The position numbers and the translations under genes were made by a program. A stretch of 64,000 nucleotides of DNA from Phytoseiulus persimilis (Eukaryota; Arthropoda; Arachnida; Mesostigmata; Phytoseiidae): contig CM075103.1 in the NCBI GenBank assembly GCA_037576195.1, positions 31,704,723-31,768,722 on the forward strand. Direction: 5' to 3'. Positions 1 through 54,017 of the stretch are shown piece by piece. The notes under the pieces were generated by a model. That model was not told the origin of the DNA and did no database searches. It saw only the letters and a program-made list of their open reading frames with translations. Numbering within the stretch: the stretch's first letter is position 1; every line of letters begins with the position of its first letter.

Positions 1-1080
1 CACGTGCGGCCATGCTTAGCTCCCATCGAGCCAATAAGAAGGAGCCAGGCAGCCAACGGACAGGAAGAACCTCAGTACGGGGGACGTTCTCCCCACCAGC
101 CCGGGTAAGCATCCAGGTTTTCGGCTCCGATACTCGACGTTCGTTTCGAGGAGCGCATCGTCGCCGTCTCTCTCTCGGAGCTCGGGTTTTGCCCCTTCTG
201 TTACGAGAAGGGGGAACCTCAGAGAGTGATCAAGAGCCATAATCTGCGTGCTCGCAACGGCACCCTCGCCTGTCCCATTCTGAGGAGCTTCAAATGTCAT
301 CTGAGCATTTGCGAGGGTTGTGACTCGGCCCACACCTTCAGCTATTGTCCAACGTTGGAGAACCCAACAGACCGAATTTTTACCGTCATGTAATGAAGAA
401 GTTCGCGGTCAGACGTATGCAGCTCTTGAACTGTTCAGGAACGGATGGTATAATTAATTTGGAAGGGCGGAGGATGCGCCTCCGTCTTGACGAATGGCCT
501 GAATACGTCGTGAAATCAACTCAAAATGACCTCTTCAAAGTTTTCGATTATGTAAGTGGCGTTCTCGATAGTACGAATTCAGCTCATTCGTATCCTCCAT
601 CACGCGTTTGAATTGAGGGCGACAAAGGATAACCCGGACATGTCTTTGTCTGTATACGGTGTATTCAGCATCAGAGACCCCGATGACATAAGAAGGGCCC
701 TCTTGGGACCTTCGGCAGCTCTCGAGGCCTGAACCATAAAACCCATGGAAATCGAAAAAAGAGGATCCCATTGAACATTCGAATTTAGGGGTCCTTCTTG
801 GCCGCAACGAACCCCGACCTCTAAACCTAGAAACGATGCTGTCCCATAACTGCGACAGCAACTATTCCTGCGATGATTCCGTCACCTGGATGACCGACAT
901 TTGCAGTTCATCAAAAGCAGTCGAGTTAGCCGGGTTTTGTGATGTTCCTGTGATGGAGAGATTTTTTCATCATAAACATGCGACTTGGTGTTTGGTGACG
1001 AGGTTCGAAGCCCTTGACTTCAACTGGGTCTGTTGTCGACTGGCTCCATGTTTCTGCAACCACCAGTATCATCAGCGCGG
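1..1080. repeat. Segmental duplication, partner of 39096-40085
   Basis: The Nanos-like pseudogene and its 3' flank align by eye with the intact gene at 38978-39529 and its 3' flank. Shared blocks include the end of the finger domain, the segment around CTAGAAACGATGCT (about 826 and 39846) and the stretch ending near the CACCAGTA motif (about 1060 and 40060). The copies have diverged by many substitutions and small indels, so the duplication is old compared with the 3720-15006 inverted repeat. The Tigger remnant begins just beyond the shared part. Confidence 0.6.
109..393 (+). pseudogene. Nanos-like zinc-finger pseudogene (copy N0)
   Basis: The frame from about 127 to the TAA at 391-393 reads through a Nanos-type zinc-finger domain: LGFCPFCYEKGEP, then SHNLRARNGT, then ACPILRSFKCHL, then SAHTFSYCP. 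The first CCHC finger is complete. In the second finger the second cysteine is serine (CHLS instead of CxxC), although a nearby ICEGC could in principle offer other ligands. An in-frame TAA at 106-108 closes the frame upstream, and the conserved basic tail after the finger is lost to a frameshift. The closest relative in the window is the intact gene at 38978-39529; similarity to it extends from the left window edge and continues past the gene. Nanos proteins bind mRNA together with Pumilio and repress translation in the germline. This copy is very likely non-functional. Its 5' part may be cut by the window edge. Confidence 0.75.
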
Positions 1081-1144: not shown

Positions 1145-1960
1145 CAGCTTCCGTTAGACGGATCCAAGTATCGTTCAGTGACAGACGAAGATTGGATGGT
1201 AACCTGGAACCGCGGGCTAGCCGAAAAGGGTAGAGAGATTTGCCTCATCCTTGACAATTGCTCCGCCCATCCTCATGTCCCAAATATGCTAAACATCCGA
1301 CTCAAGTTCCTACCGGGCAACACGACTGCATCAATACAGCCCATGAACATGGGGATCATCAAGAACCTGAAGACCTTGTATCGTCAGAAGCTCGTTGCAT
1401 TGATCACAAAGTACATCGAGAGCAATCTCGTGGAGCCGTCGATGGGTGCCCAGACAATCAGCTCGAAAATCAATGTCCTGCAAGCTATTCAGTTCGTCGC
1501 GGACAGTTGGCAAAACGTTAGCACGGACACAATCCGTAACTGTTTCGAGCACTGTTCTTACAATGAAAACCCTGGCCGTTCTCTCGAGCAAGAAGACGAA
1601 ACGGATTGCGATCTGCTTCCAGTTCAGAATCTCGAGACTTTCTTGACGATTGACGATGATGTCCAGTGCCACTCTTCAGTTGAACCCCACGAAGATGAGA
1701 TCGTCTAGGAAATTGCGGTGAATCAGGGCTCTCTAGTGGACTCTGGTTCAGAAAACGGAGAGGAGTACCGAGAAGCGGAAAAGCCTGTAGCTGTGCATGA
1801 AGCTGAGCGAAGTATAGAACTACTTCAACAATTTTTCATGCAAGATTTCGAGGAGAACAGTCCACGACCGTCTTTAGAAATTTGTGCCGATTTCGTTCGT
1901 AGAATGTCGAGGGCGAAAAGGAGACAGACTTCAATCGCTGAATTCTTCGTCAAGCACTGA
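1145..1960 (+). mobile_element. Tigger/pogo-type transposase remnant
   Basis: The frame 1178-1708 contains the pogo-family DDE core: ICLILDNCSAHP (second catalytic Asp in the DNC motif), LKFLPGNTTASIQPM, and GIIKNLKTLYRQKLV. The third catalytic position, normally QPMDQG, reads QPMNMG here, so Asp is replaced by Asn. The first catalytic Asp and the DNA-binding HTH region are not present upstream. After a single in-frame TAG at 1706-1708 the same frame continues to 1960, with an acidic stretch and a basic end (RRMSRAKRRQTSIAEFF) that resembles the usual Tigger C-terminal tail. The element is therefore truncated at the 5' side and catalytically dead. No terminal inverted repeats were located. 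Confidence 0.8.
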
Positions 1961-3600: not shown

Positions 3601-3862
3601 ATCTAAGCATGGAAACATGTACCAATAAACCGAATCCAGTTCCAGGAATTATGCTGTACCAATGGAGAAAGAGAAAAGCGCCCCGATGCCAGAGACCGCA
3701 GTCAAATCGCGCGTAGTGGGCTCAAAGGCCGGGTGGTCTTCATGGATACTTATGAGTCGGACAGGACACAGCTTCTGATCGATTCGATTAGTTCCCCGCA
3801 CCAAGAACTTCCGAGGGTGCCGCGAAAAATGATGAACAACAAAGTAATTTCCAGTCAAGTTA

Positions 3863-3868
3863 TTTATT
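3863..3868 (-). terminator. Poly(A) signal of Nanos-like N1
   Basis: TTTATT on the plus strand is AATAAA on the gene strand, about 95 bp beyond the stop codon. The same signal is conserved in copies at 9999-10004 and 14856-14861. Confidence 0.6.
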
Positions 3869-3961
3869 CTCTGCAGTGGAATACTACTACTCGCTATTTA
3901 GCACCCAAAAGCTCTATATAATTTCAAGATATTCTACTTCCAGTCTAACAGATCTGAGTGC

Positions 3962-4474
3962 TCAGTCGTTCTCGCTCCACTTCACGTACTGATCACTCGG
4001 AGAGGGGTTAAGTAGAAGATGTTCTCGAGGCACGCTCATCCGAACGTGGCGGACGAGGTTTGGCTGCTTCGGATCATTCGACAGCGGACAATACTTCAAC
4101 GTATGTGCGTGGTCACCGCCCCTGTTATGGCACAGAGAGCACTTGTAGGCTCTCAAAAACGGGCATGCCACCGTCCCGTTCGGGTGGCGCAAATTGTGGG
4201 TCTGGTACACCTGAGGTGGATGCCCATTTTTCAGACACATCGGGCAGTGTCCGAGGGCCGATACGGGAACGGCCACGATGCAGCTCTGGAGGCCTGCCTC
4301 CAGCCCCGAGAACTCGGGTCCCACAGGTTGGGTCTCCCATTCTCGTCTGGGTCCCGAGCGATGGCCAGGAATCCTGCTCCGAAGACTCCTCTGTTTACTC
4401 CATCCGTTTGAATGGCTAGCCGATGCGTCCACTACAATCCATGCGTTGAAACAGTTCTGAAGTGCAGAAGACAT
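3962..4474 (-). CDS. Nanos-like RNA-binding zinc-finger protein N1
   Basis: A 170-residue protein starting MSSALQNCFNAW. I chose the ATG at 4474 because it is conserved in copies N3 and N6; the longer open frame has no upstream ATG. The N-terminal ~75 residues are Ser/Arg-rich without a known domain. The Nanos domain spans about residues 80-140. Finger 1 is C-x2-C-x12-H-x10-C (CPMC ... THNLRHPNGTVAC). Finger 2 is CSLC ... AHTLKYC, with eight residues between the second Cys and the His where the family usually has seven. A conserved tail follows (RHVRMSVPREHLLL). Nanos proteins partner with Pumilio to repress translation and recruit deadenylases in germ cells. The gene is a single exon with its own TATA box 65-72 bp upstream and a poly(A) signal downstream. 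It is nearly identical to N3 in the other inverted arm. The family assignment is strong; activity is inferred. Confidence 0.88.
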   Translation of the reverse strand: MSSALQNCFNAWIVVDASASHSNGWSKQRSLRSRIPGHRSGPRREWETQPVGPEFSGLEAGLQSCIVAVPVSALGHCPMCLKNGHPPQVYQTHNLRHPNGTVACPFLRAYKCSLCHNRGGDHAHTLKYCPLSNDPKQPNLVRHVRMSVPREHLLLNPSPSDQYVKWSEND

Positions 4475-4538
4475 GATGAAGAACAACACTAGTCGACGAG
4501 TTCAGCTATCGAGTGAACTTTGTGGGGTTCCGACCCCT

Positions 4539-4546
4539 CTTTTATA
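4539..4546 (-). promoter_or_regulatory. TATA box of Nanos-like N1
   Basis: CTTTTATA on the plus strand is TATAAAAG on the gene strand. It is followed about 30 bp later by TTCACTC, an initiator-like motif, then the ATG. The same arrangement is kept at N3 (14177-14184) and in diverged form at N6 (30763-30770). Conservation in a copy as diverged as N6 supports function. Confidence 0.75.
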
Positions 4547-4571
4547 CCATGAGCCCCGAAGCTCCTCGCCC

Positions 4572-5006
4572 TCAGCAATTCGACGAGAATCCGACGAATG
4601 GCCGCGGAGACCTTGCTGTGGAGAGCATCCGAGGAACCTTTTCGTGAAAGTAGGGGACGTCCGGCAGATGAGCTTCTCGAAACTTCTTCTCAATATGTTG
4701 TAGAAGTCGATGCTGTGGATCGACTTCTTCCTCTGCTCGAGCTTCCATGATTCTCCCGGAAATCCGAGGTAAAACGGCGAGCTCGGGTACGAGCCATCCA
4801 GAAGTTCCATCACGATCTTGTGGACTTACCCGAGAGCCCCTAGCTATACGAGACGAAGGCGTTGGGAGGAGTTGACATCCGTTCTTCCGCTTGCTTGATA
4901 TACCCTCTTCCTGATTTTGCGGGACTCCTAGTGCCCCATGTGTTCCACCCGCACAATCACAAGGAAACGAACACTTGCCAGGGGCTCCACCCGCGGAGTA
5001 TTTCAC
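4572..5006 (-). CDS. Hypothetical 144-codon ORF upstream of Nanos N1
   Basis: Open frame MKYSAGGAP to GFSSNC, ending 26 bp before the N1 TATA box. The arm B copy (13732-14151, 139 codons) keeps the frame open despite a 15-bp net indel, which is a multiple of three. A second overlapping frame (4502-4813; copy 13913-14221) is also open in both arms, so the arms are too similar to tell coding from chance. No domain is recognised. The frame contains a charged helical-looking stretch (RIMEARAEEEVD, then LLQHIEKKFREAH). It may be an upstream gene or simply non-coding promoter-proximal DNA. Confidence 0.25.
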   Translation of the reverse strand: MKYSAGGAPGKCSFPCDCAGGTHGALGVPQNQEEGISSKRKNGCQLLPTPSSRIARGSRVSPQDRDGTSGWLVPELAVLPRISGRIMEARAEEEVDPQHRLLQHIEKKFREAHLPDVPYFHEKVPRMLSTARSPRPFVGFSSNC

Positions 5007-6929
5007 CTGATCGAATGCTTTGCTGGCAATCTGTCCGAGTGGTCAGAGTTGAAAATCGCGAAGAGTGCACATTATGTGTGAAGTGAATCCATGTGGACCA
5101 TTCGCGCGAGTATCAAACATTTATCATGCACGGAATGACACATGTTGAGCAGAAGAGGATCGATGCTGGCTATCGAATAGAATTTCTGGAAGACTGGAGC
5201 TGTGTACAAGAATCCTCAACGGATTTTCGCGGTTCGCGATTCCAAGGTTCGCGAGCTTCGTGTTAGGTCGATGCACATGAAATGGATCACCCCGAGATGT
5301 GTAAGTTCGGCCCCACGGTCGATGGCGAGTTCTTGCGATCCACGCGGGGAATACCCTGAAGGGCGCTCCAATGAGACTGGAAATACCTCCCTCGAGTCCT
5401 CCGAAAGCTGACCCTTAAGCTACAAATCAGGTAAAGGAGAAGTCTCGCGTAGGGAACAGCAGCTCATGATTTCAGAACGAGAATTCCGTTAACTCCTGTC
5501 CATAAATTGTAAGCTTCATACCTATGGTAAAGGATAGGTCGGAGGTTCACGGTTTCGCATCGAAAACCATGCAAAGAACGGAGCTCATTGAGTCGAAAGA
5601 GATTCGAAAGTTCCACGCTGATTGGTTGAAAACGTTTAAAGTCTTGAGAGGACTCCCCCCTGTTCACTCGGGGCGCATTCATGGATTCATGAAACCGGGC
5701 GCGCCGGGAACTCAGGAAGCGACCGTCCATAGATAGACGTGTCGTATCTCAAGCACTTCGCCATTCGGTTGTCGGGTTTTTTGGCTGTGTGAGATGTTTT
5801 CTGAATCCAACACTCGCAGATACGATCGGCTGGCGGAAGAAGCCCATTGCGAACTCTCGTCATGAATAGACGCGTGAGATTGAAGAGTGTCTCGCACATT
5901 CGGACAGATCGTCTCAACAACAAGTCTCAGTGCCATATTGCATACTCGGGCCCATCGTTACCGGATCGGGATTTCCAACTCACGATCCGCGTCACACTTT
6001 ATTCGTCCAGTCTGAGCGCTCGTTCTAGATGCCTGGAACATGCATGCATGCACCCCGCGTCAGTCTATCGCCGCAGTCTCTCGAATTAGTGGCGGGACGA
6101 TGGACCTCTATTTGCTCAGAAGATGCTCCGAACTCTTTCAACTAGCAATCTCGAGTACATCTCGGCAGAGCGGTGCAGTCGAGATCTTGGACGCGTATAA
6201 TCGAATTCGCCGTGATTCGCCGTTCGATGCCACCCAAGCAACGTTCAACTCGGGGGTCGAGCTTCCGCGCCGCTGAGCGCTAAAACTCCTCTGCACCTTT
6301 TCCCCTTTGAGAATAGTTCTCCATTAATGCGTCAACGTCTCCCGGCCTTCATTCTCCGGGAATGGAACATACTCGGATGTCACCATGAGATGGGGACGCA
6401 TGAGATACCAGAAAGATGGAGGAGCTCGATAGTGGGGTTGCAAGGAATCCAAGAGTCCGTATTTCTTGGTGAGGGCGCGAAATTACGGATGCGGGTTCGA
6501 ATCCCAACAACCCTGATTCTGAACTAATGATGACCAGAATCGGAGGCTGATCGGGGTCGATCGATTCCTGTGCTCTTTCAGGAGCGAGTGTGTTCTGTCT
6601 CGCTTCTGGAATAGACTTTCCCAGACTCATTCTGGCCCACAAAGTTTCGAGAATCTGGATCTCAGTCTAGCAATTCGACCATCTTGTGACCTCGCCCCCT
6701 CGAATCGACATCGATCGTGATCGTCCTCCGACGAACGTCATCCAACGGCGCCTCACGAGACTGCAGGCAGGCGGGTGGACACTCTTACCTTTTTCAGACA
6801 CGACGGTGCCTCAACGATGCATGGCTTATGACGGCCGCCAAAAACCTCAAATACCTCAAAGGAGATCAGCACAGAGGCGGGTTTCACGCGAATACCGAGA
6901 CATGAAACTGGCTTCAAATACGGAATTTT

Positions 6930-7250
6930 CGACCCTCATCTGGACCCCTACTTGAAAGTCTCCTCGTTGAGAGAACCAAACTCAATAGAGGCCAAACTTA
7001 CCACGTACAGACCCATCACCCGAATCTGGAACACGAGGATGGACGGATTGATTGGAGCAGCTCTCAAAGATGCGGGTCAGAAACGGTCTCAAAGGGGAGA
7101 CAACCCGTTAATCCTCTCATCCGGAATGGGACTCACGAGTGCCCACCAAGAGGGCTTGATTTGCGTGTTCCTTGATGAAACGAAAGAATATGATAGAATT
7201 GATTGTCATTACCATTACAACTTCATCAAAGCGGATTCTCCGTTGTGACA
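6930..7250 (+). mobile_element. Non-LTR reverse-transcriptase fragment in arm A
   Basis: The frame reads TTYRPITRIW, then NPLILSSGMGLTS, then GLICVFLDETKEYDRIDC. This matches the order seen in non-LTR reverse transcriptases: YRPI motif, then a finger motif, then the palm motif FLDxxKxYDRI with the first catalytic Asp. It also aligns with the better-preserved copy at 50287-51140 (NIFILTSAM, ACFLDCLRVLDRI). The inverted copy is at about 11502-11800, and a third copy lies at 16180-16545. It is a short fragment with no intact polymerase. Confidence 0.65.
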
Positions 7251-8027
7251 AACCAGAAAGCGTCACTTCGAAGACCGAAATACTCGTTGCAGCGGATCGT
7301 GATGACGCGCGCTGTGTGATAACCATGTCGATCACCGGCATCCAAGCAGACGAATGCTCGAAGCATCTCTTTGAGCGGAGCCACGGTAGGGAACATCTGG
7401 AAGTCGACACCCCTGTTGCGACCAAGTTGTTTTATTTGCGTTTTTGCGCGCGCGAATTCAGCATTCCATGGCAGCCACCCATAGCAAGACACGAAAGAAA
7501 TATTCGCCAATATAAGTCAAATGTTTTTGTACACGTGAAAGCAGAAACGAAGAAGAGTGATGTCGTGGAGGAATACCAAGTTGAGCAAGGCATTCCAGTG
7601 GCAGCTCACGTCTAACGCGTGGATGGTCGATCGAGCAATCCTCCGATATACGGTTCCTTGCTTCAAGACAAAACGCTGCAGATTGCCCGAGCTTTGAGTC
7701 ACCAAAATTTCCGAGCCAGAGGGGGATGGCTTGCCCGATTTCGAGATCGTTGCGGCAGCAGCAGCACAGCGCTTTGTAGTGATACGGCTGACGCTCCCGC
7801 AGGAACAGCGAGGAAGTCGTGAGACAATGGAATCAAATGAATCATCGGGAAGAGCAGCCATGACGTTGCGGACGAGACCGCTTCGTTCTTCCGGCTCCCA
7901 CCTGAGCGTTCCATGGTTGTCGAAGGAGACCGGTGCAAGTGGTACAGACAAGAGTGCACCTCTCGTCATCGTCCGCTCCGTAGAGCCGCGGTGACTAAAG
8001 AATGGGCGATCGCTTTCCTGAGTAACG
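7211..8027. other. Start of spacer between inverted arms, no confident gene
   Basis: The minus-strand frame 7517-8044 is open for 175 codons (LRWEPEERSGLVRN, SFDSIVSRLPRCSC) but matches no family I recognise. A similar WEPEE string occurs in the receptor at 24216-26147, which could be coincidence or a hint of a decayed receptor. The plus strand shows only short frames. Confidence 0.3.
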
Positions 8028-9905
8028 GGACAATAACGGAGCATGGGTGACTCGCGAGCTTTCCAGTGAAAAATCGGTCCAATTCAATCGAGAGATGAAA
8101 GTTGCGGGTTCTTCTTCCGGTGGATAACTGTTCAGTCTATTAGGTCATTCCACCCGTTCCGAACGTCCTAGTTTAGTACTTTCTACCAGACAGCACCTCA
8201 ATACTACGACCCCCCGATCTGATTGAATACGAGCGTTAGAAACCCGTTATCGGTTTCGCTACGCATGATTCTGTGGCGAATCGATGACGACAGGCAGCTC
8301 AAAATCAGCCGGCCCCTCGGTCGTTCGTGTAGTTCTTGTTGATTATTTCGTTGAGAGGACATAACTTCTCGTTGGAGGAGCGAGGATGTCCAAGCAGCTT
8401 CCAGGGCGATTCGACTCAATGGCTCTTCATTCGAACACAGGTGTTTATGTTTACGATGACGGCATCGCAACGTTGTGATCATCAGTGTGTCATAGGGAAA
8501 GGATCGCAATGAGTTTGCCCTGTCGACATCTCGAGAAGGGATTGTTAACTGCAACGGTCTTCGCGATGTAATTCATCCGTACCGTACAACCGCTGCGAAG
8601 GCTGTTAGTAACGGTTTCAGGAGTTATGGGTGCGTGGAAATTTGGTCGCGGCGTCTCGATGACGCGCACTTGCACCAACAGCAGAGAAGCCACGCCCAAA
8701 ATGTTCAATTTGTTGAAATAGCTCGGCGGATTTCGCGAAGAGAGTGCTTTCCTGACGTGCGTCTGACTCCCAGTGGAAGGTTCGTAGTTCTTGAGCACCG
8801 TCACGTTACACTGGTCGCTCCCCGTGGATAAGATTCCGAAGAAGCGAAGACTGTTCAGAGGAAATCGCCGCCAACGAATCCTGAACCGTTTTTTTGGTCA
8901 GCGTCGGAGCTTGTCTGAGAAACAATAGCGCAGACGTTCACCAATGCTTTAAGGTCGTCGTGGCGTCGGAGGAGTGGTTTGAAGTTTTGGAAGCTTTGTG
9001 TGAGTCCTATCCGACACCACAGTGACTCGTCAGATTCTCGAGAGGCAAGAGCCCGGCAGAGAAAAATTCCAATCCACGTCGTCGATCCCTGTAACGCACT
9101 GAGAAGGAACTCGCGAGAGGTTCAAGAACTCCTCCCGGAGGAGCGGTGTCGTAGAGGTCGGTCCCGGATCTCAAAAAGAGTCGGAGATGTCCTGAAATCC
9201 CGCAAAAAAAAAAATACCGCATTCCTCCGTGTGTATCCAGTTTCCAAAGGTTTGAGCTGCTTCGATGCCTGAAATGGAACTTTTCTCTACATCCGTCTGC
9301 TGCCGCGAACTCCTGAAGTCCTGGCTTCGTTCGGGTTGAGTCCCGGTCCCTGCATATCTTCTGCACTTCACGACTCGTCCAGCGCGTGGATTGGAGCTCA
9401 GCGAAATTCCAGAAGACGGGCTTCTCTTTTCGAAAATCACAGGGCGAACAGCTCCGGAATGATCAGAGGAGTCATCGGAGAAGAACTCCTGCCGATCTTT
9501 CGGGACCCAGACGCGAACGGGACACCCAAGCTGTGGGACCCGAGTCCTGGGGGCTGGAGTGGTTGGAGCCAGGCCTCCAGAGCTGCACCGGGGCCGTTCC
9601 CGTATCGGCCCTTGGACACTGCCCGATGTGTCTGAGGAATGGGCATCCACCTCAGGTGTACCAGACCCACAATTTGCGCCACCCGAACGGGACGGTGGCG
9701 TGCCCGTTTTTGAGAGCCTACAAGTGCTCTCTGTGCCATAACAGGGGCGGTGACCACGCACATACGTTGAAGTATTGTCCGCTGTCGGATGCTCCGAAGC
9801 AGCCAAACCTCGTCCGCCACGTTCGGATGAGCGTGCCTCGAGAACATCTCCTTCTGAACCCCTCTCCGAGTGATCAGTACGTGAAGTGGAGTGAGAACGA
9901 CTGAG
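8028..9905 (+). repeat. Direct duplication, copy 1 (partner 17583-20737)
   Basis: Blocks 8028-8625 and 8625-9905 align with 17583-18145 and 19560-20737 in the same orientation. Shared landmarks include GCATGGGTGACTCG (about 8041 and 17600), CTCCCCGTGGATAAGATTCC (about 8818 and 19757) and the Nanos-like copies N2 and N4 at the ends. The second copy carries about 1.4 kb extra at 18145-19560, or the first has lost it. Confidence 0.8.
9354..9904 (+). pseudogene. Nanos-like copy N2: finger intact, start lost
   Basis: The last ~110 codons are almost identical to N3: SALGHCPMCLRNGHPP, THNLRHPNGTVAC, KCSLCHNRGGDHAHTL and the tail to WSEND. Both fingers keep all ligands. Where N1 and N3 have the ATG of MSSALQ, this copy has ATA (9354-9356, then TCTTCTGCACTTC), and the N-terminal reading frame differs from the finger frame by a frameshift. 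No in-frame ATG precedes the finger domain. The upstream DNA is unrelated to the N1/N3 promoter and lacks the TATA box. I therefore call it a pseudogene with a finger domain that appears recently homogenised with N3. An upstream spliced exon supplying a start cannot be excluded. A poly(A) signal follows at 9999-10004. Confidence 0.7.
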
Positions 9906-9998
9906 CACTCAAATCTGTTAGACTGAAATGTAGAATATCTTGAAATTATATCGAGCTTTTGGGTGCTGAATAGCGAGTAGTAGTATTCCACTACAGAA

Positions 9999-10004
9999 AA
10001 TAAA
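9999..10004 (+). terminator. Poly(A) signal after Nanos-like N2
   Basis: AATAAA about 95 bp after the stop codon, at the position equivalent to the signals of N1 and N3. The 3' flank matches that of N1 to about 10216, further than it matches N3. Confidence 0.5.
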
Positions 10005-10401
10005 TAACTTGACTGGAAACGACTTTGTTGTTGATTCATTTTGCGGGGCAGCCTCGGGAGTTCTTAGTGCGGGGAACTTCTCGAATCGATCAGAAGCTGT
10101 GTCTGTCAGACTCATGAGAATCCATGAAGACCAGCCGGCCTTTGGGCCGACTGCGCGCGATTTGACTGCAGTCTCTGGCATCGGGGCACTTTTCTCTCTC
10201 TTCATTGGTACAGCGTCATTCCTGAAGCGATCTCCCCATTCGGTTGGTTTATACATGTTTTCATAGACAGATTGATTCATGGTCAGATGGAGAGAAAAAG
10301 TGGCCAGACTCTCTAGATTCCGGGAAGAATGGTCGCATCCCACACGAACGACCTCTCCGCGGCTCCGGATGACAGTGTGATGTCATCGGAACGAAGTTCC
10401 T

Positions 10402-11260
10402 CTACAGGTCGGTGAGGTCATGCTGGCTGGCGATAATTGCGGAACCGAGCGCACGAGAGATGACGGCGTTGAGAGCTCGGTGGCGAGAATGGAGGCCCGC
10501 GCTTAGCAGGGAACAGCAGAGACCGAGGTCACCCAACGCGGAAACGGTGGACCTGCGCCTGGCACGCAGATGGGGTGCCCACAGGGTAAGCCCCAGGCGG
10601 AGACCAGCGGCGATGCGGAGTGCGGTGTTGTAAAGCAACGTGCCAGCCAATGGTGAGGGAATGGCGAAGAGCCATTTTCCGCTGCTGGAATGGAACGCCG
10701 CCTCGAGCCTTGCGCGCTCGAAGTCAGCGGCCTCAGTGAGTTCTGCCTGTCTGAACAGTACCACGACGCTGCGGAGCGTCGCCCGGTTGATGTTTTGCGG
10801 GATTGTGAGCCAGCGCTCCCGAGAAGTCTACAGTTGGCCGTCGATTATCACTCCGAGGTGTGCATCCAGGGCCGAGGGGAGAAACTCGCTGCTAGCTCTC
10901 TGATTCGGAACAGGGAGCCCAAGTTAGCGGACGTGGCCAGGTCCTCGACGGAGCGAATCCCCCAGTCGCCAGCAGAGACTGGTAGTGACGCCTGTCGCCA
11001 GGGGTTGGCGGATGTGAGGTCGGGGTTGAGCGCTGCAGCAAGGCAGGCACGCACCTTGGCGTCGAGCCGGTGCAGGTGTTCGGGGGAAGCGGCGGCGTCA
11101 GCAAACCTCGAGACATAGAGTAGACGATGTGCCGAGAGGCTGCAGCGAACGAGTAAGAGGGCTGAAGGAGCGTCGATGATGGGCACTCCAGAGCAGCGAA
11201 GCTCCGTCAGCGATGAGTTCTTGTCGAGAACCCCAGTGGCATAGCCAGGACTTCTCCCGG
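10402..11260 (-). mobile_element. Non-LTR retrotransposon 3' end (decayed)
   Basis: The minus strand carries two frames typical of the region after the polymerase core in a widespread class of animal non-LTR elements. 11186-10848 contains AHRLLYVSRFAD, HLHRLDAKVRACLAAAL and WRQASLPVSAGDWGIRS. 10764-10402 contains SGKWLFAIPSP, LRIAAGLRLGLTL and HSRHRALNAVISRAL. A related, independently decayed copy lies at 48515-49430 on the plus strand and shares the IAAGLRLG and RHRALN motifs. Frameshifts separate the blocks and the catalytic core is missing, so this is a 5'-truncated dead copy inside the spacer of the inverted repeat. Confidence 0.75.
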
Positions 11261-12481
11261 GAAGGGGCTAAGGGATTTTTCCTTCCGCCCGCCTTCCTTC
11301 TACGCGTCTGTATAAGCCTGAAGAAACCCTTGCTTGATCTTCTGCCGAACCTTTCATAGATGATCTATGAAATCCAAGCATTCTCCGAGACGCAACACAC
11401 TTGCTTGAGGATTTCATCTGCGGTTGTCCTAGTATACCTGGTGGAGAAGTTCAATGAAGGCTGGACTCAGTCTCCTCTCTTCCAAACTCTGCTGAAGTTG
11501 ATGTCAATCAATTCTATCATATTCTTTCGTTCCATCAAGGAACACGCAAATCAAGCCCTCTTGGTGGGCACTTGTAAGTTCAATTCCGGATAAGAGGATA
11601 AACGGGTTGTCCCCCCTTCGAGACCGTTTCTGAACCCATTTGGGATCTCTGAGAGCTGCTCGAATCCATCCGTCCATTCTCGTGTTTATTCACAGATTCG
11701 GATGATGGGTCTGTACGTAGTAAGTTTGTCCTCCATTGAGTTTGGTTCTTTCATCGAAGAGACTTTCAAGCTCGGACTCGCGAGTCCGAGTCCCCGAGTC
11801 CAGATGAAGGTCGAAAATTCCGTATTCGAAGCCAGTTTCATGTATCGGTTTTTTCGTGAAACACCTCGTTGTGCTGATCTCCTTCGAGGTATTTGAGGTT
11901 TTTGGCGGCCGTCATAAGCCCTGCATCGTTGAGGCACCGTCGTGTCTGAAAAAGTTAAGAGTGTCCACCCGCTTGCCTGCAGTCTCGTGAGGCGCCGTTG
12001 GATGACGTTCGTCGGAAGACGATCACGATCGATGGCAATTCGAGGGGGCGAGGTCACAAGATGGTCGGATTGCTAGACTGAGATCCAGATTCTCAAAACT
12101 TTGTGGGCCAGAATGAGTCTGGGAAAGTCTATTCCAGAAGCGAGACAGAACACACTCGCTCCTGAAAGAGCACAGGAATCGATCGACCCCGATCAGCCTC
12201 CGATTCTGGTCATCATTAGTTCAGAATCAGGGTTGTTGGGATTCGAACCCGCATCCGTAATTTCGCGCCCTCACCAAGAAATACGGACTCTTGGATTCCT
12301 TGCAACCCCACTATCGAGCTCCTCCATCTTTCTGGTATCTCATGCGTCCCCATCTCATGGTGACATCCGAGTATGTTCCATTCCCGGAGAATGAAGGCCG
12401 GGAGACGTTGACGCATTAATGGAGAACTATTCTCAAAGGGGAAAAGGTGCAGAGGAGTTTTAGCGTTCAGCGGCGCGAAAG

Positions 12482-12499
12482 CTCGCCCCCCCCCCCCCG
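12482..12499 (+). repeat. Poly-C tract in arm B
   Basis: A run of about 14 C, where arm A has five G on the plus strand (about 6252-6256) and copy C has six (about 15413-15418). This is simple slippage within an otherwise nearly identical arm. Confidence 0.7.
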
Positions 12500-13731
12500 A
12501 GTTGAACGTTGCTTGGGTGGCATCGAACGGCGAATCACGGCGAATTCGATTATACGCGTCCAAGATCTCGACTGCACCGCTCTGCCGAGATGTACTCGAG
12601 ATTGCTAGTTGAAAGAGTTCGGAGCATCTTCTGAGCAAATAGAGGTCCATCGTCCCGCCACTAATTCGAGAGACTGCGGCGATAGACTGACGCGGGGTGC
12701 ATGCATGCATGTTCCAGGCATCTAGAACGAGCGCTCAAACTGGACGAATAAAGTGTGGAAGCGCGGATCGTGGCTTGGAAATCCCGATCCGGTAACGATG
12801 GGCCCAAGTATGCAATGTCGCACTGAGACTTGTTGTTGAGACGATTTGTCCGAATGTTCGAGACACTCCTCAATCTCACGCGTCTATTCATGACGAGAGT
12901 TCGCAATGGGCTTCTTCCGCCAGCCGATCGTATCTGCGAGTGTTGAATTCAGAAAACATCTCACACAGTTAAAAAACCCGACAACCGAATGGCGAAGTGC
13001 TTGAGATACGACACGTCTATCTATGGACGGTCGCTTCCTGAGTTCCCGGCGCGCCCGGTTTCATGAATCCATGAATGCGCCCCGAGTGAACAGGGGGGAG
13101 TCCTCTCAAGACTTTAAACGTTTTCAACCAATCAGCGTGGAACTTTCGAATCTCTTTCGACTCAATGAGCTCCGTTCTTTGCATGGTTTTCGATGCGAAA
13201 CCGTGAACCTCCGACCTATCCTTTACCATAGGTATGAAGCTTCCAATTTATGGACAGAAGTTAACGGAATTCTCGTTCTGAAATCATGAGCTGCTGCTCC
13301 CTACGCGAGACTTCTCCTCTACCTGATTTGTAGCTCAAGGGTCAGCTTTCGAAGGACTCGAGGGAGGTATTTCCAGTCTCATTGGAGCGCTCTTCAGGGT
13401 ATTCCCCGCGTGGATCGCAAGAACTCGCCATCGACCGTGGGGCCGAACTTACACATCTTGAGGTGATCCATTTCATGTGCATCGACCTAACACGAAGCTC
13501 GCAAACCTTGGCATTCCGTTGAGGATTCTTGTACACAGCTCCAGTCTTCAAGAAATTCTATTCGATAGCCAGCATCGATCCTCCTCTGCTCAACATGTGT
13601 CATTCCGTGCATGAGAAATTTTTGATACTCGCGCGAATAAGCCACATGCATTCACTTCACACATAATGTGCACCATTCGCGATTTTCAACTCAGACCAGT
13701 CGGATAGATTGCAAGCAAAGCATTCGATCAG

Positions 13732-14151
13732 GTGAAATACTCCGCGGGTGGAGCCCCTGACAAGTCTTCGTTTCCTAGTGATTGTGCCCGGATAGGAGTC
13801 CCGCAAAATCAGGAAGAGGGTATATTAAGCAAGCGGAAGAACGGATGTCAACTCCTTCCAACGCCTTCGTCTCGTATAGCTAGGGGCTCTCGGGTAAGTC
13901 CAAAAGATCGCGATGGAACTTCTGGATGGCTCGTACCCGAGCTCGCCGTTTTACCTCGGATTACCGGGAAAATCATGGAAGCTCGAGCAGAGGAAGAAGT
14001 CGATCCACAGCATCGACTTCTACAACATATTGAGAAGAAGTTTCGAGAAGCTCATCTGCCGGACGTCCCCTTCTTTCACGAAAAGGTTCCTCGGATGCTC
14101 TCCACAGCAAGGTCTCCGCGGCCACCCGTCGGATTCTCGTCGAATTGCTGA
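13732..14151 (+). CDS. Hypothetical 139-codon ORF upstream of Nanos N3
   Basis: Arm B counterpart of the ORF at 4572-5006, differing by about ten residues and a five-codon in-frame gap. It ends 25 bp before the TATA box of N3. No domain is recognised. The overlapping frame 13913-14221 is also open, so coding status is unproven. Confidence 0.25.
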   Translation: MKYSAGGAPDKSSFPSDCARIGVPQNQEEGILSKRKNGCQLLPTPSSRIARGSRVSPKDRDGTSGWLVPELAVLPRITGKIMEARAEEEVDPQHRLLQHIEKKFREAHLPDVPFFHEKVPRMLSTARSPRPPVGFSSNC

Positions 14152-14176
14152 GGGCGAGGAGCTTCGGGGCTCATGG

Positions 14177-14184
14177 TATAAAAG
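14177..14184 (+). promoter_or_regulatory. TATA box and initiator of Nanos-like N3
   Basis: TATAAAAG at 14177-14184, with an initiator-like TTCACTC at 14206-14212. The A at 14209 lies 32 nt from the start of the TATA box, which is the expected spacing for transcription start. The ATG follows 40 nt later at 14249. Confidence 0.78.
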
Positions 14185-14248
14185 AGGGGTCGGAACCCCA
14201 CAAAGTTCACTCGATAGCTGAACTCGTCGACTAGTGTTGTTCTTCATC

Positions 14249-14761
14249 ATGTCTTCTGCACTTCAGAACTGTTTCAACGCATGGATTGTAGTGGACGCAT
14301 CGGCTAGCCATTCAAACGGATGGAGTAAACAGAGGAGTCTTCGGAGCAGGATTCCTGGCCATCGCTCGGGACCCAGACGAGAATGGGAGACCCAACCTGT
14401 GGGACCCGAGTTCTCGGGGCTGGAGGCAGGCCTCCAGAGCTGCACCGGGGCCGTTCCCGTATCGGCCCTTGGACACTGCCCGATGTGTCTGAGGAATGGG
14501 CATCCACCTCAGGTGTACCAGACCCACAATTTGCGCCACCCGAACGGGACGGTGGCGTGCCCGTTTTTGAGAGCCTACAAGTGCTCTCTGTGCCATAACA
14601 GGGGCGGTGACCACGCACATACGTTGAAGTATTGCCCGCTGTCGGATGATCCGAAGCAGCCAAACCTCGTCCGCCACGTTCGGATGAGCGTGCCTCGAGA
14701 GCATCTCCTTCTGAGTCCCTCTCCGAGTAATCAGTACGTGAAGTGGAGCGAGAACGACTGA
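14249..14761 (+). CDS. Nanos-like RNA-binding zinc-finger protein N3
   Basis: A 170-residue protein, MSSALQNCFNAW to WSEND, the arm B twin of N1. The ATG at 14249 is preceded by an in-frame GTG codon stretch that is not needed as a start. Both fingers are intact: CPMCLRNGHPP...HNLRHPNGTVAC and CSLCHNRGGDHAHTLKYC, with the one-residue-longer second finger shared by all full copies. It differs from N1 at a few positions (CTGAV for CIVAV, LRN for LKN, SPSN for NPSD). At the first two it agrees with N2, which suggests exchange with N2. The promoter (TATA, initiator) and poly(A) signal are in place. The expected role is germline mRNA repression with Pumilio; this comes from the family, not from evidence in this locus. 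Confidence 0.88.
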   Translation: MSSALQNCFNAWIVVDASASHSNGWSKQRSLRSRIPGHRSGPRREWETQPVGPEFSGLEAGLQSCTGAVPVSALGHCPMCLRNGHPPQVYQTHNLRHPNGTVACPFLRAYKCSLCHNRGGDHAHTLKYCPLSDDPKQPNLVRHVRMSVPREHLLLSPSPSNQYVKWSEND

Positions 14762-14855
14762 GCACTCAAATCTGTTATGTTAAAATGTGGAATATCTTGA
14801 AATTATATAGAGCTTTTGGGTGCTGAATAGCGAGTAGTAGTATTCCACTGCAGAA

Positions 14856-14861
14856 AATAAA
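14856..14861 (+). terminator. Poly(A) signal of Nanos-like N3
   Basis: AATAAA about 95 bp after the stop, at the position equivalent to the N1 signal. Confidence 0.6.
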
Positions 14862-15212
14862 AAACTTGACTAGAAATGACTCTGTTGTTCATCATTGTTC
14901 GTGGCACCCTCGGGAGTTTTTGGTGCGGGCAACTTCTCGAATCGATCGGAAGCTGTGTCTGTCCGACGCATGAGAATCCATAGAAGACCAGCCGGTATTT
15001 GGGCCGAGTGGAGTCGGCCATTCGGATAATTGTAGTATTTTTGCTTGGAAGTGATCACACGCGTTTGTGAGAGTCTGAACGCGCGCGGTTCGCGCTGCCA
15101 TCGAAGCATCGGACCTCAGCGCACCCGAACGTTCACCTCTTCCTATCGTCTCTCTGAGTCACGAAAGCCAGCTGAGATACCCGATCTCACAGCATTGGAG
15201 ACGGTTCCCGAA

Positions 15213-16430
15213 GCCCGCGTCAGTCTATCGCTGGAGTCTCTCGAATAATTGGCGGGACGATGGACCTCTATTTGCTCAGAAGATGCTCCGAACTCTTTCA
15301 ACTCGCAATCTCGAGTACATCTCGGCAGAGCGGTGCAGTCGAGATCTTGGACGCGCATGACCGAATTCGCCGTGATTCGCCGTTCGATGCCACCCGAGCA
15401 ACGTTCAACTCGGGGGGTCGAGCTTCCGCGCCGCTGGACGCTAAAACTCCTCTGCAGCTTTTCCCCTTTGAGCATAGTTCTCCATAAATGCGTCAACGTC
15501 TCCCGGCCTTCATTCTCCGGGAATGGAACATGCTCGGATGTCACCATGAGATAGGGACGCATGAGATACCAGAAAGATGGAGGAGCTCGATAGTGGGGTT
15601 GCAAAGAATCCAAGAGTCCGTATTTCTTGGTGAGGGCGCAAAATTACGGATGCGGGTTCCCAACAACTCTGATTCTGAACTAGTGATGACCAGAATCGGA
15701 GGCTGATCGGGGTCGATCGATTCCCATGCTCTTTCAGGAGCAAGTGTGTTCTGTCTCGCTTTTGGAATAGACTTTCCCAGACTCATTCTGGCCCACAGAG
15801 CTGTGGGAATCCGGATCTCAGTCTAGCAATTCGACCATCTTGTGACCTCGCCCCCTCGAATCGCCATCGATCGTGATCGTCCTCCGACGAACGTCATCCA
15901 ACGGCGCCTCACGAGACTGCAGGCAAGCGGGTGGACACAACAATACAATTCACCCCTGAAACGGAAGGGAACATATGTGCATATGTTAGGTCCAATAAAA
16001 TCAAATCAAACACTCTTAACTTTCTCAGACACGACGGTGCCTCAACGATGCATGGCTAATGACGGCCGTCAAAAACCCCGAATACCTCAAAGGAGATCAG
16101 CACAACGAGGTGTTTCACGCAAACACCGATACATGAATCTGGCTTCAAATGCGGAATTTTCGACCCTCATCTGGACCCCTACTTGAAAGTCTCCTTGATG
16201 AAAGAACCAAACTCAAATGAGGACAAACTTACCACGTACAGACCCATCACCCGAATCTGGGAAGACACACGAGGATGGACGGATGGATTGGAGCAGCTCT
16301 CAAAGCTGCGGTTCAGAAACGGTCTCAAAGGGGAGACAACCCGTTTATCCTCTCATCCGGAATGGAACTTACGAGTGCCAACCAAGAGGGCTTGATTCGC
16401 GTGTTCCTTGATATAACGAAAGTCCAGCAC
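15213..16430 (+). repeat. Third copy (C) of the inner part of the inverted-repeat arm
   Basis: In direct orientation with 6055-7200 of arm A, starting at CGCGTCAGTCTATCGC and running through the retroelement fragment. It lies only ~200 bp beyond the outer end of arm B. The copy includes a ~77-bp insertion (15937-16013) and has lost a few bases of the GGGTTCGAATCC segment present in A and B. Confidence 0.85.
15937..16013 (+). mobile_element. 77-bp insertion in copy C
   Basis: Relative to arms A and B, copy C carries an extra AT-rich segment between GTGGACAC and TCTTAAC. The insert ends in ACAC, matching the four bases before it, so it could be a small insertion with a 4-bp target duplication. 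It includes the self-complementary string CATATGTGCATATG. Too short to classify. Confidence 0.4.
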
Positions 16431-19559: not shown

Positions 19560-20285
19560 TGGTACGTTGGAACTTGGTCGTGGCGTCCCGATGACGCGCA
19601 CTTGCACCAACAGTAGCGAAGCCACGCCCTCAATGCTTCATTTATTGAAACAGCTCAGCAGATTCCGCAAAGAGAGGAATCCACCGTGCTTTCCTGACGT
19701 GCGTCTGACTCCGAGTGGAAGGTTCGTAGTTCTTGAGCACCGTCACGTTACACCGGTCGCTCCCCGTGGATAAGATTCCGAAGAAGCGAAGACTGTTCAG
19801 AGGAAACCGTCCGCCAACGAATCCTCAACCGTTTTTTTTGGTCAGCGTCGGAGCTTGTCTGAAAAACCGTTCACCAATGCTTCGAACTTGTCCTGGCGAT
19901 GGAGAAGTGTGTTGAAGGTTTGGAAGCTTTGTGTGAGTCCCATCCGAGACCATAGTGACTCGTCAGATTCTCGAGAGGCAAGAGCTCGGCAGAGAAAAAT
20001 TCCAATCCACGTCGTCGATCCCTGTAACGCACTGAGAAGGAACTCGCGAGAGGTTCAAGAACTCCTCCCGGAGGAACGGTGTCGTAGAGGTCGGTCCCGG
20101 ATCTAAAAAAGAGTCGAAGATGTCCTGAAATCCCGCAAAAAAAAAATACCGCATTCCTCCGTGTGTATCCAGTTTCAAACGGTTTGAGCTGCTTCGATGC
20201 CTGAAATGGAACTTTTCTCTACATCCGTCTGCTGCCGCGAACTCCTGAAGTCCTGGCTTCCTTCGGGTTGAGTCCCGGTCCCTGC

Positions 20286-20737
20286 ATATCTTCTGCACTT
20301 CACGACTCGTCAAGCGCGTGGATTGGAGCTCAGCGAAATTCCAGAAGACGGGCTTCTCTTTTCGAAAATCACAGAGCGAACAGCTCCGGAATGATCAGAG
20401 GAGCCATCGGAGAAGAACTCCTGCCGATCTTTCGGGACATCGACGAGAACGGAGGACCCCAGCTGTTGGACCCGAGTCCTCGAGGCTTGAGGCAGGTGTC
20501 CAGAGCTGCATCGTGGCCGTTCCCGTATCGGCTCTCGGACACTGCCCGGTGTGTCTGAAAAAGGGGCACCCACCTCAGGTTTACCACAGCCACAACCTAC
20601 GCCACCAGAACGGCACGGTGGCGTGCCCTTTTTTGAGAGCCTACAAGTGCTCTCTGTGGCCTAACAGGGGCGGCTACGCCCATTCATTGGAGTTTTGTCC
20701 GCTCCGAAGCAACCAACGATCGTTCGCCACGCGATGA
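20286..20737 (+). pseudogene. Nanos-like copy N4 (decayed)
   Basis: Shares with N2 the ATA in place of the ATG (20286-20288), the frameshifted N-terminal part and the unrelated upstream DNA. The finger domain frame (20318-20737) keeps finger 1 (CPVCLKKGHPP, SHNLRHQNGTVAC). In finger 2 the second cysteine is tryptophan (CSLW), and the spacing is one residue shorter. The conserved tail RHVRMSVPREH is replaced by unrelated residues that run into a 19-bp tandem repeat. It lacks a start, a promoter and an intact second finger, so it is almost certainly non-functional. At the CIVAV position before the finger it agrees with N1 rather than N2. Confidence 0.82.
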
Positions 20738-30485: not shown

Positions 30486-30698
30486 TCAATCTTGCAGATC
30501 GCAATGTTCAGTAATCCTCGTACTGTCCACTCCCCGTACTGTTAGCTGAGTGGGAGGTTGAGGTCCCGAGCGATAGGCACGAATCCTTTCTCGATGACTC
30601 CTCTTTATTCGCGAAGGATTGCTCCACCCGCTTGAATGCCGAGCGGTTTCCCCTACAGTAATCCACGCGCTGTTAGAGTTCTGAAGTGCAGAAGACAT
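30486..30698 (-). pseudogene. Truncated Nanos-like copy N6 with promoter
   Basis: Starts at the ATG at 30698 (MSSALQNSNSAWITV) and matches the N-terminal ~50 residues of N1/N3 (ATGTCTTCTGCACTTCAGAA is shared). It then runs out of frame and out of similarity before the zinc-finger domain. Upstream it keeps the family promoter: a TATA box at 30763-30770, the AATTCACTCGATAG initiator segment and similar spacing to the ATG. Without the finger domain it cannot encode a Nanos protein. It lies 0.8 kb from the end of the second ionotropic receptor gene. Confidence 0.8.
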
Positions 30699-30762
30699 TC
30701 CGATGAACAACGCTGGTCGAAGAGTGCATCTATCGAGTGAATTGTATGGAGTTTATACTTTT

Positions 30763-30770
30763 TTTTTATA
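30763..30770 (-). promoter_or_regulatory. TATA box of truncated Nanos copy N6
   Basis: TATAAAAA on the gene strand, with the conserved TTCACTCGATAG initiator region downstream, homologous to the N1 and N3 promoters. Confidence 0.55.
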
Positions 30771-33156: not shown

Positions 33157-33199
33157 CGTAGGAGGTTGTGAGCCGTCTGGAGCAAGTCCGCGCAAGTCT

Positions 33200-38977: not shown

Positions 38978-39529
38978 ATGCTTAAAGCCGCTATCGCCGC
39001 CTTCGAAGAGAAGCTCGAATCTCGGAGAGAATTCGAGCGATTGATCAACGAGATGGATCTTCTCCGGAGTCGTGATCTGGGATCAGAAACGAGTGGCCAC
39101 GCGCCGCTCCCATCAGCCTCAGAAGAAGGAGGAACCGGGCACTCGAGGAACAGGAATAACCTCAAGAAGGGGAGACGTTCTTCTCGCCAGCTCAGGCGAG
39201 AGCCGGAGGGTTCGGCTACGATACCCGTTTCTCCGATACTCGACGCACGTTTCGAGGAGCGCATCGTCGTGGTGCCGCTCTCGGACCTCGGGTTTTGCCC
39301 GTTCTGTTTCAAGAAGGGTGAACCTCGACGAGTTTTCGGGAGCCACAATCTGCGGGCTCGCGACGGCACGGTCGCCTGTCCTGTGTTGCGGAGCCTCAAG
39401 TGTCGTCTCTGCAACTGCGAGGGTGGTGACTTCGCTCACACCCTCAGCTATTGTCCAACGTCGGAGAGCCCCAACAGACCGAACCTCTACCGGCGTATGA
39501 GAATGAAGTTAGCGGTCAGACGAACGTAG
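38978..39529 (+). CDS. Nanos-like zinc-finger protein N5 (divergent, intact)
   Basis: A 183-residue single-exon protein from the ATG at 38978 to TAG at 39527-39529. The N-terminus (residues 1-30, MLKAAIAAFEEKLESRREFE) is predicted helical and unlike N1/N3. A Ser/Arg-rich linker follows to ~100. The Nanos domain covers about residues 105-165: CPFCFKKGEP, SHNLRARDGTVAC, CRLCNCEGGDFAHTLSYC, then a basic tail (LYRRMRMKLAVRR). All eight zinc ligands are present. As in N1/N3, finger 2 has eight residues between the second Cys and the His, one more than the common form. The family binds mRNA 3'UTRs with Pumilio and maintains germ cells. I see no clear TATA box upstream. A decayed copy of this gene and its 3' flank opens the window. 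Confidence 0.85.
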   Translation: MLKAAIAAFEEKLESRREFERLINEMDLLRSRDLGSETSGHAPLPSASEEGGTGHSRNRNNLKKGRRSSRQLRREPEGSATIPVSPILDARFEERIVVVPLSDLGFCPFCFKKGEPRRVFGSHNLRARDGTVACPVLRSLKCRLCNCEGGDFAHTLSYCPTSESPNRPNLYRRMRMKLAVRRT

Positions 39530-52560: not shown

Positions 52561-52582
52561 CACCGACCATCGATTTCTTGGA

Positions 52583-52875
52583 GCGATTCCGGGACCAATC
52601 TGACCTTCACTTTTCAAGTCTGGAGGGGTGATTCCGGGACAGATCTGACCATTACTTCCCAAGTCTGGGGAGGTGATTCCGGGACTAGACATCATTTTAC
52701 GTAGTACGGCAAATGAATTCTCTAATATGAATTCAAATGTACGGCAATAGTACGGCAAATGAATTCGGTTATATTCCGGGACCAATCTGAACATACTCTT
52801 CGGAGTCTGAATTGGTGAGTCCAGGATCGACCTGACCATACTTTTTAGACTCTGAGGAGGTAATTCCGGAGTCCA
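52583..52875 (+). repeat. 45-bp minisatellite array (site e)
   Basis: Two blocks of plus-oriented units (52583-52690 and about 52775-52875) separated by a segment containing two copies of GTACGGCAAATGAATTC. Confidence 0.8.
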
Positions 52876-52879
52876 TCTG

Positions 52880-53450: not shown

Positions 53451-53452
53451 TC

Positions 53453-53866: not shown

Positions 53867-54017
53867 TATTCCAGGAGGAACGAGGACAAACTGACAGACG
53901 AAGCCGATCATAAGTAGTAAGGATCCTCGGGTCCGGGGTACGAAAAATGAATTTCCGTAACGGAGTGGTACGTAAATACATTTGACGTACTCCGTACTAC
54001 GGGAAACGATGTCTATC

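What the first reader, a model, noticed from the sequence alone, without database searches (positions are those of the whole stretch)
3720..15006. Nanos-like genes held in the two arms of a 3.5-kb inverted repeat
Two intact, promoter-bearing Nanos-like genes occupy mirror positions in near-identical arms about 4.3 kb apart. The layout recalls ampliconic palindromes that keep germline genes alike by arm-to-arm conversion (for example on mammalian Y chromosomes). Nanos is normally single- or low-copy, so a palindromic amplification of a germline repressor would be unusual. The function and any link to sex or germline dosage are inference.
Basis: partly seen in the sequence, partly recalled or inferred. 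Interest (0 to 1): 0.85.

Follow-up and report, generated by a model that had tools for sequence, protein, structure and literature searches.

The report
Massively multiplied Nanos-type genes in mite
Two mirror-image copies of a germline-type (Nanos) gene are really there, but they are only two of 57 Nanos-type loci found in what appears to be a predatory-mite genome, an unusual expansion of a gene family known for controlling germ cells.

Summary
The inverted repeat is real: 3719-7209 against 15005-11501, 94% identical over 3,537 columns. N1 (3962-4474, -) and N3 (14249-14761, +) sit at mirror positions. Both are single-exon 170-aa zf-nanos ORFs with TATAAAAG at -72, an initiator-like site at -42 and AATAAA. 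Nine synonymous against six nonsynonymous differences (p 0.0018) suggest purifying selection.

The sex-chromosome-style palindrome reading is not supported. The arms belong to a patchwork that also holds N2, N4, a third partial arm and a fragment. The genome (181 Mb, four large scaffolds, probably a phytoseiid mite) has 57 zf-nanos loci, 50 with all eight zinc ligands. Thirty-three are 'C-type'; the 29 placed in the tree form a clade with no other species' sequence. A 15-copy tandem array expanded separately. Pumilio repeats, the usual partner, occur at two loci. Conversion is visible: N2 is a recombinant, and N1/N3 share near-identical tracts where a third copy differs.

Best reading: a lineage-specific, birth-and-death expansion of Nanos-type RNA-binding repressors, evened out locally by conversion. 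Expression, germline role and targets are untested. Paper listings showed no report of it.

The parts
3719..7209 (-). Arm 1 of the inverted repeat, carrying N1 at its outer end
11501..15005 (+). Arm 3 of the inverted repeat, carrying N3 at its outer end
3962..4474 (-). N1: single-exon Nanos-type gene, 170 aa, eight zinc ligands intact
4539..4546 (-). TATAAAAG of N1, -72 from the ATG; initiator-like TCACTC at 4516-4511; AATAAA at 3868-3863
14249..14761 (+). N3: single-exon Nanos-type gene, 170 aa, eight zinc ligands intact; 96% identical to N1 in protein
14177..14184 (+). TATAAAAG of N3, -72 from the ATG; initiator-like TCACTC at 14207-14212; AATAAA at 14856-14861
9317..9904 (+). N2: open frame with intact zinc-finger region but without the family TATA box and start ATG; recombinant, N4-like up to about 9490 and N1/N3-like from about 9571
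20249..20737 (+). N4: decayed copy; family ATG and TATA lost, Trp at the place of zinc ligand Cys357
15214..16422 (+). Third, partial copy of the inner part of the arm (orientation of arm 1), no Nanos gene in it
190..351 (+). N0: degenerate C-type zinc finger (a ligand lost; its N-terminal part, just before the window, has a stop)
38978..39529 (+). N5: intact C-type Nanos-type gene, 183 aa, with the family's N-terminal MLKAA...RDLG region
30486..30770 (-). N6f: older fragment with TATA (-72), TCACTC (-42), ATG (30698) and an N-terminal part like N1/N3, stop at 30486, no zinc finger
   Evidence: (I13)

Best explanation
N1 and N3 are two probably working members of a Nanos-type gene family that has expanded greatly in one mite lineage (shown: copies, intact ORFs, constraint). 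Copies multiply by DNA-level segmental duplication, tandem and inverted, so that N1 and N3 keep the same core promoter, single exon and poly(A) signal (shown). The inverted arms are one such duplication, later evened out in patches by conversion among neighbours, while other copies decay (shown: recombinant N2, tracts in N1/N3, broken N0/N4). The proteins most likely act like Nanos: a tandem CCHC zinc finger that joins Pumilio on mRNA 3'UTRs and recruits silencing (inferred from the family). N1/N3 keep 5 of 6 RNA-contact residues known from Drosophila; the larger C-type arrays have changed three of them in concert, so they may prefer other RNAs or partners (inferred). Germline or early-embryo expression is likely but untested.
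For: 57 zf-nanos matches in the genome, all 57 above Pfam's cut-off; 50 of 57 keep all eight ligands, and 28 of 33 C-type copies keep ligands plus the in-frame family ATG. Foldseek on models of N3 and of one C-type copy: all 6 matches with E<=0.001 for each are Nanos chains. Constraint: N1/N3 9 syn, 6 nonsyn, p 0.0018; 12 C3 copies 69/70, ratio 0.30, p 6e-18; 14 copies of the 28.26-Mb array 38/40, ratio 0.33, p 8e-8. C-type clade 97/97 without a database sequence in it. N2 switch between about 9490 and 9571. Conversion tract: 4 arm1-arm3 differences vs 27 third-copy-unique sites in 6054-6653, 45 vs 15 in 6654-7186. The -72/-42 promoter spacing is the same in the diverged fragment N6f. PUF repeats at two loci only.
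Against: No transcript or protein evidence for any C-type copy: a search with N3 over 5.8 billion proteins found nothing at E<=0.001 (48 candidates), though the best hits of another window gene are only 76% identical, so this species itself seems absent there. The C2 array shows weak, non-significant constraint (12 copies, 17 syn, 38 nonsyn, ratio 0.64, p 0.12). The first 73 codons of N1/N3 show 0 syn and 2 nonsyn differences, so constraint there is untested. F321, where Ala abolished repression in Drosophila, is Met in N1-N3. The TATA-like site is not family-wide: 13 of 29 C-type copies with the family ATG and 0 of 15 array copies have it. No Pumilio-contact or NOT1-binding motif was shown. 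The conversion test rests on three copies.
Confidence: 0.76

Rival explanations
1. One reading: a palindrome whose two arms are kept alike by selection for arm-to-arm conversion, protecting germline genes or raising their dosage.
For: Arms share tracts of 370, 318, 272 and 244 identical nt, more than uniform mutation gives (permutation p 0.0006), and a three-copy comparison points to conversion. If males are haploid, as in described phytoseiids (PMC6902594 passages), in-chromosome copies would be the only templates in the male germline (inference).
Against: Arms are only 94% identical. Conversion also built N2, which is not in an arm. Most of the family lies in tandem or dispersed copies rather than in this palindrome. 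No sex chromosome is expected.
Confidence: 0.1
2. The copies are mostly by-products of an unstable, duplication-prone region with transposons, with no function for N1/N3.
For: N0, N2, N4 and N6f are decayed or incomplete; a LINE-type ORF with reverse transcriptase lies in the cluster and a DDE_1 transposase fragment in the window; weak constraint in the C2 array.
Against: N1/N3, the 12 C3 copies and the 28.26-Mb array carry proportionally fewer nonsynonymous than synonymous changes; 50 of 57 loci keep eight ligands.
Confidence: 0.13
3. Assembly artefact: unmerged haplotypes or misjoined copies.
For: Not testable without reads; small unplaced contigs exist, one of which (C53) also holds Nanos copies; one 348-base run of N lies in the upstream cluster.
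Against: No N in the window; arms differ by several percent and their flanks are unlike; copies sit in both orientations and on two large scaffolds; PUF repeats show only two loci, so no general doubling is seen.
Confidence: 0.04
4. The genes travel as cargo of a transposable element.
For: Dispersed copies in both orientations; transposon genes nearby. In the C2 array, copies share flanks in two subgroups that part at one point (L029:1993).
Against: Copies lie in a few clusters; repeat units range from about 1.8 kb to several kb with differing ends. I did not search for shared terminal repeats.
Confidence: 0.05

Closest known systems
Nanos (Drosophila nos; zebrafish Nanos, PDB 3alr; Nos-Pum-RNA, PDB 5kl1)
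   Same: Tandem CCHC zinc finger with all eight ligands; same fold; 5 of 6 RNA-contact residues in N1-N3.
   Different: N1/N3 are short single-exon genes in a large family; F321 is Met. C2 and C3 arrays have Lys, mostly Leu, and Ser at the sites of N325, Y352 and K368 (which saw 52 of 57 loci). The modelled C-type copy has a predicted N-terminal helix (residues 2-33, pLDDT about 81).
Nanos-type proteins of Galendromus occidentalis (P0121, P0123, P0124)
   Same: P0121 groups with C1:17887453 and C53; P0123 and P0124 group next to the 28.26-Mb array.
   Different: Three proteins named for that species, two of them on contigs of the same listed length; none falls in the C-type clade. The search is limited by shared words and protein length, so absence is not proven.
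Bombyx mori nanos family
   Same: Several nanos homologues in one arthropod.
   Different: Four homologues (PMC13120685, passage) against 57 loci here.
Ampliconic palindromes of mammalian Y chromosomes (recalled)
   Same: Inverted arms with genes at mirror positions; conversion tracts.
   Different: Lower identity here, no sign of a sex chromosome, one of many duplications.

Membership tests
Nanos family | zf-nanos domain (PF05741) above the curated cut-off | tested here: met
   N1 64.9, N2 64.3, N3 63.9 bits vs cut-off 27
Nanos family | Eight zinc ligands, CCHC x2 | tested here: met
   N1, N2, N3, N5 intact; N0 and N4 not; 50 of 57 in the genome
Nanos family | Zinc-finger fold as in 3alr / 5kl1 | tested here: met
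   N3 model: zinc-finger blocks pLDDT 76-91, rest low, mean 60.6; Foldseek 3alr_D TM(target) 0.91. The aligned part is about a third of the protein
Nanos family | RNA-contact residues F321, N325, Y352, T366, K368, Y369 (from PMC4995099 passages) | tested here: inconclusive
   N1-N3 5 of 6 (F321 is M); C2 and C3 arrays 3 of 6 in nearly all copies; C2:2004492 6 of 6
Nanos family | C-terminal tail that contacts Pumilio; N-terminal NOT1-binding motif (the latter recalled) | not testable with these tools
   No partner test; tail and N-terminus not compared residue by residue
Nanos family | Germline expression and translational repression | not testable with these tools
   No expression data held
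Ampliconic sex-chromosome palindrome | Near-perfect arm identity (over 99%, recalled) | tested here: not met
   94.0% over 3,537 columns; 147 mismatches in 3,470 columns
Ampliconic sex-chromosome palindrome | Arm-to-arm gene conversion | tested here: met
   Local tract signature; conversion is not confined to arms
Ampliconic sex-chromosome palindrome | Sex-limited or sex-linked chromosome | not testable with these tools
   Species unnamed; phytoseiids in PMC6902594 (passages) have haploid males by paternal genome elimination

The most novel reading that the evidence does not exclude
A phytoseiid mite lineage with paternal genome elimination has turned Nanos into a large multigene system: two separate expansions, with RNA-contact residues changed in concert, producing many short Nanos-type repressors for the oocyte or early embryo, perhaps to silence a diversified set of maternal messages or to take part in marking or removing the paternal genome. 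Conversion among clustered copies would serve as their repair template, most of all in haploid males.
Probability: 0.12. Interest if true: 0.88.

Novelty: new variant of a known kind. Interest (0 to 1): 0.62.

Why it matters
Nanos is a conserved germline regulator that is usually kept at one to a few copies (recalled; four in Bombyx). An animal with dozens of copies, many of them constrained, but only two Pumilio-type loci, allows a direct test of whether Nanos can evolve as a diversifying, multi-member family, what its altered RNA-contact residues bind, and whether this is linked to the unusual reproduction of these mites. It also offers a natural example of conversion among clustered germline-type genes where no sex chromosome is expected.

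Tried and rejected
Y-like palindrome: rejected as the main account (see rivals). Retrocopy origin: not favoured, since N1, N3 and fragment N6f keep the same promoter spacing. N2 as a third intact gene: rejected, because the family ATG and TATA are gone, though its zinc finger is intact; an unseen start or splice cannot be excluded. An upstream exon for N1 (ORF 4502-4810, same frame, a stop between): considered and dropped in favour of the TATA/initiator placement; not proven. The C-type N-terminal motif was not found upstream of N1-N4 (only short matches at E 1.7 or worse, in N4). Organism by COX1: no match in the assembly. Telomere repeat (TTAGG)6: 0 matches, uninformative. Papers: the listings showed no report of a Nanos expansion in mites; many hits there are for words such as nanoparticle, and the library holds open-licence papers only. 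Passages seen: PMC5467014 ([quoted passage not shown] PMC5535294 has no nanos in its text. No paper was read whole. The boundary at 6654 was chosen, so its p value is optimistic.
Full report
OBSERVATION. The inverted repeat is present as described. Self-comparison gives 3719-7209 against 15005-11501, 3,537 columns at 94.0% identity; seven of the eighteen inverted pairs are pieces of it. The spacer is 4,291 nt. N1 (3962-4474, minus) and N3 (14249-14761, plus) lie 243 and 244 nt from the outer arm ends. Each encodes 170 aa with a zf-nanos domain (64.9 and 63.9 bits, cut-off 27). The proteins are 96% identical.

GENE MODEL. Both genes have TATAAAAG starting 72 nt and TCACTC starting 42 nt before the ATG, and AATAAA 96-97 nt after the first base of the stop. 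In one search, 54 of 2,000 random 250-nt windows of the cluster hold TATA[AT]A[AGT], so a chance TATA is uncommon but possible. Stronger support is an older fragment in the window, N6f, where TATA, TCACTC, ATG and the first codons have the same -72/-42 spacing although the two copies are 74% alike over 184 nt. Its frame ends at 30486 without a zinc finger. In the wider family TATAA[AG] lies 61-80 nt before the family ATG in 13 of 29 C-type copies (N1 and N3 among them) and in 0 of 15 copies of the 28.26-Mb array, against 44 of 20,000 random 20-nt windows. None of the 12 start-bearing C2-array copies has it. In the C3 copies the site lies in a stretch that is also an open frame, so it could be coding there; copies are related, so they are not independent witnesses.

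NEIGHBOURS. The window has six zf-nanos matches: N0 (190-351), N1, N2 (9620-9781), N3, N4 (20543-20701) and N5 (39296-39457). N1, N3 and N5 are intact, though N5 lacks the TATA-like site. N0 has lost a ligand; N4 has Trp for a zinc-ligand Cys. N2 and N4 share a 5' part without the family TATA and ATG. A third copy of the inner part of the arm lies at 15214-16422 without a Nanos gene.

CONVERSION. N2 is a recombinant. In 80-nt bins from 9011 to 9490 it is 95-99% identical to N4 and 50-77% to N1/N3; from 9571 to 9810 it is 98-100% identical to N3, 94-99% to N1 and 82-89% to N4; further down it is about equally like N1 and N3. The arms themselves are uneven: the longest identical runs are 370, 318, 272 and 244 nt, and with 97 events in 2,974 core columns the longest run has a permutation p of 0.0006. 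That test alone cannot tell conversion from local rate differences. A three-copy comparison helps: in 6054-6653 arms 1 and 3 differ at 4 sites while the third copy is alone at 27; in 6654-7186 the numbers are 45 and 15 (Fisher p 1e-8; the boundary was chosen). This supports conversion between arms.

GENOME. The window is C3:31704723-31768722 of a 181-Mb assembly of 127 contigs. C1-C4 are 54.7, 52.0, 38.9 and 28.1 Mb; five further contigs sampled are 25-125 kb. The genome has 57 zf-nanos matches, all above the cut-off. A protein search with N3 also lists 57 matches: 56 of these loci, without C3:35742067, plus the finger-less N6f. The 57 fall into: 13 on C2:5.15-5.52 Mb, 14 on C3:31.61-31.74, 5 on C3:36.02-36.08 and 1 on C2:4.0 (C-type, 33 in all); 15 in a tandem array at C3:28.26 with a usual period of about 1.8 kb, and 3 on C53 (B-type, with related singles at C1:17.89 and C3:35.74); and four other singles. 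I read all 57: 50 have the eight ligands, and 42 of these also have one of the family start motifs that I looked for; singles and C53 have other starts, which I did not look for. The counts are lower bounds by the tool's own statement. Other families: PUF repeats occur at two loci (15 matches); Piwi-domain matches at about twelve places (19 matches). So no general doubling of the genome is seen.

ORGANISM. The fatty acyl-CoA reductase in the window (45811-47310) is 73% identical over its whole length to one of Galendromus occidentalis, 55% to Tropilaelaps and 52% to Varroa, with two unnamed sequences at 75-76% (best 120 of 1,029 listed). G. occidentalis is a phytoseiid. I infer a phytoseiid or near relative, not G. 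occidentalis itself. The N. cucumeris genome paper (PMC6902594, passages) describes paternal genome elimination and haploid males in phytoseiids and has no mention of nanos in its main text.

TREE. With 52 of the 57 copies, 11 of the 16 database proteins and two solved Nanos domains, the 29 C-type rows form a clade at 97/97 without any other species; the 28.26-Mb array groups with one unnamed database protein and next to two G. occidentalis proteins. The alignment is short (78 columns kept), 20 of 52 inner branches are open, and the tree is rooted at the midpoint. The search behind it found only 16 proteins and depends on shared five-residue words and on length, so C-type genes in other mites may have been missed. 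The search with N3 alone found none.

SELECTION. Counting changes per site: N1/N3 9 synonymous and 6 nonsynonymous (p 0.0018); 12 of the 19 C3 C-type loci (left out: the six window copies and C3:31643114) 69 and 70 (ratio 0.30, p 6e-18); 28.26-Mb array, 14 of 15 copies, the one with an internal stop left out, 38 and 40 (ratio 0.33, p 8e-8); C2 array, 12 of 13 copies, the one without the start left out, 17 and 38 (ratio 0.64, p 0.12; 8 copies gave 0.67, p 0.17). Pairwise NG86 gives similar ratios: 0.31 (13 copies with N5), 0.53 (8 C2 copies), 0.36, 0.20. These counts treat sites as independent and ignore conversion and transition bias. The C2 array is either young or relaxed. In N1/N3 the first 73 codons say nothing (0 and 2).

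FOLD AND POCKET. Models of N3 and of one C-type copy have confident zinc fingers (pLDDT blocks 76-91 and 85-95) and otherwise low confidence, except a predicted N-terminal helix (residues 2-33, about 81) in the C-type copy; mean pLDDT is 60.6 and 71.9. In Foldseek all six matches with E<=0.001 for each model are Nanos chains. Against residues shown to matter in Drosophila Nos (PMC4995099, passages), N1-N3 keep N325, Y352, T366, K368 and Y369 and have Met for F321; the C2 and C3 arrays keep F321, T366 and Y369 but have Lys, Leu (Phe in three) and Ser at the others in 24 held copies, save single losses; the 28.26-Mb array has Phe, Asn and Phe at 352, 368 and 369 in 15 of 15 (52 of 57 loci). C2:2004492 keeps all six and is the best candidate for a conventional Nanos.

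VERDICT. The interpretation shifts from a palindrome to a family expansion in which the palindrome is one local event. The expansion itself is the interesting part. Function in the germline, and any link to paternal genome elimination, remain inference.

Noticed in passing
C3:28255505-28280207 (L019-L022): Tandem array of 15 Nanos-type loci with a usual period of about 1.8 kb, placed apart from the C-type clade in the tree; one copy has an internal TGA.
   Followed up: partly
window 24216-26147 (-) and 31459-33300 (-): Two long open frames of 643 and 613 aa without a Pfam match; hydrophobic segments suggest membrane proteins, perhaps chemoreceptor-like (impression only).
   Followed up: partly
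window 45811-47310 (+): Single-exon fatty acyl-CoA reductase of 499 aa, 73% identical to one of Galendromus occidentalis.
   Followed up: yes
window 1196-1708 (+): DDE_1 transposase fragment just outside the repeat.
   Followed up: no
L017:3896-9503 (-): LINE-type element (endonuclease and reverse transcriptase ORF of 1046 aa, neighbouring 850-aa ORF without a Pfam match) inside the Nanos cluster.
   Followed up: partly
C3:31538185-31540245: Piwi-domain matches about 75 kb before the first Nanos copy of the C3 cluster; chance or a germline gene neighbourhood.
   Followed up: no
window 52066-53917 and 54154-54225: Repetitive open frames with recurring GITPPD...IGPG-like units on both strands.
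   Followed up: no
C2:5.15-5.36 Mb (L029-L036): The C2 copies fall into two subgroups with different downstream flanks that part at L029:1993.
   Followed up: partly
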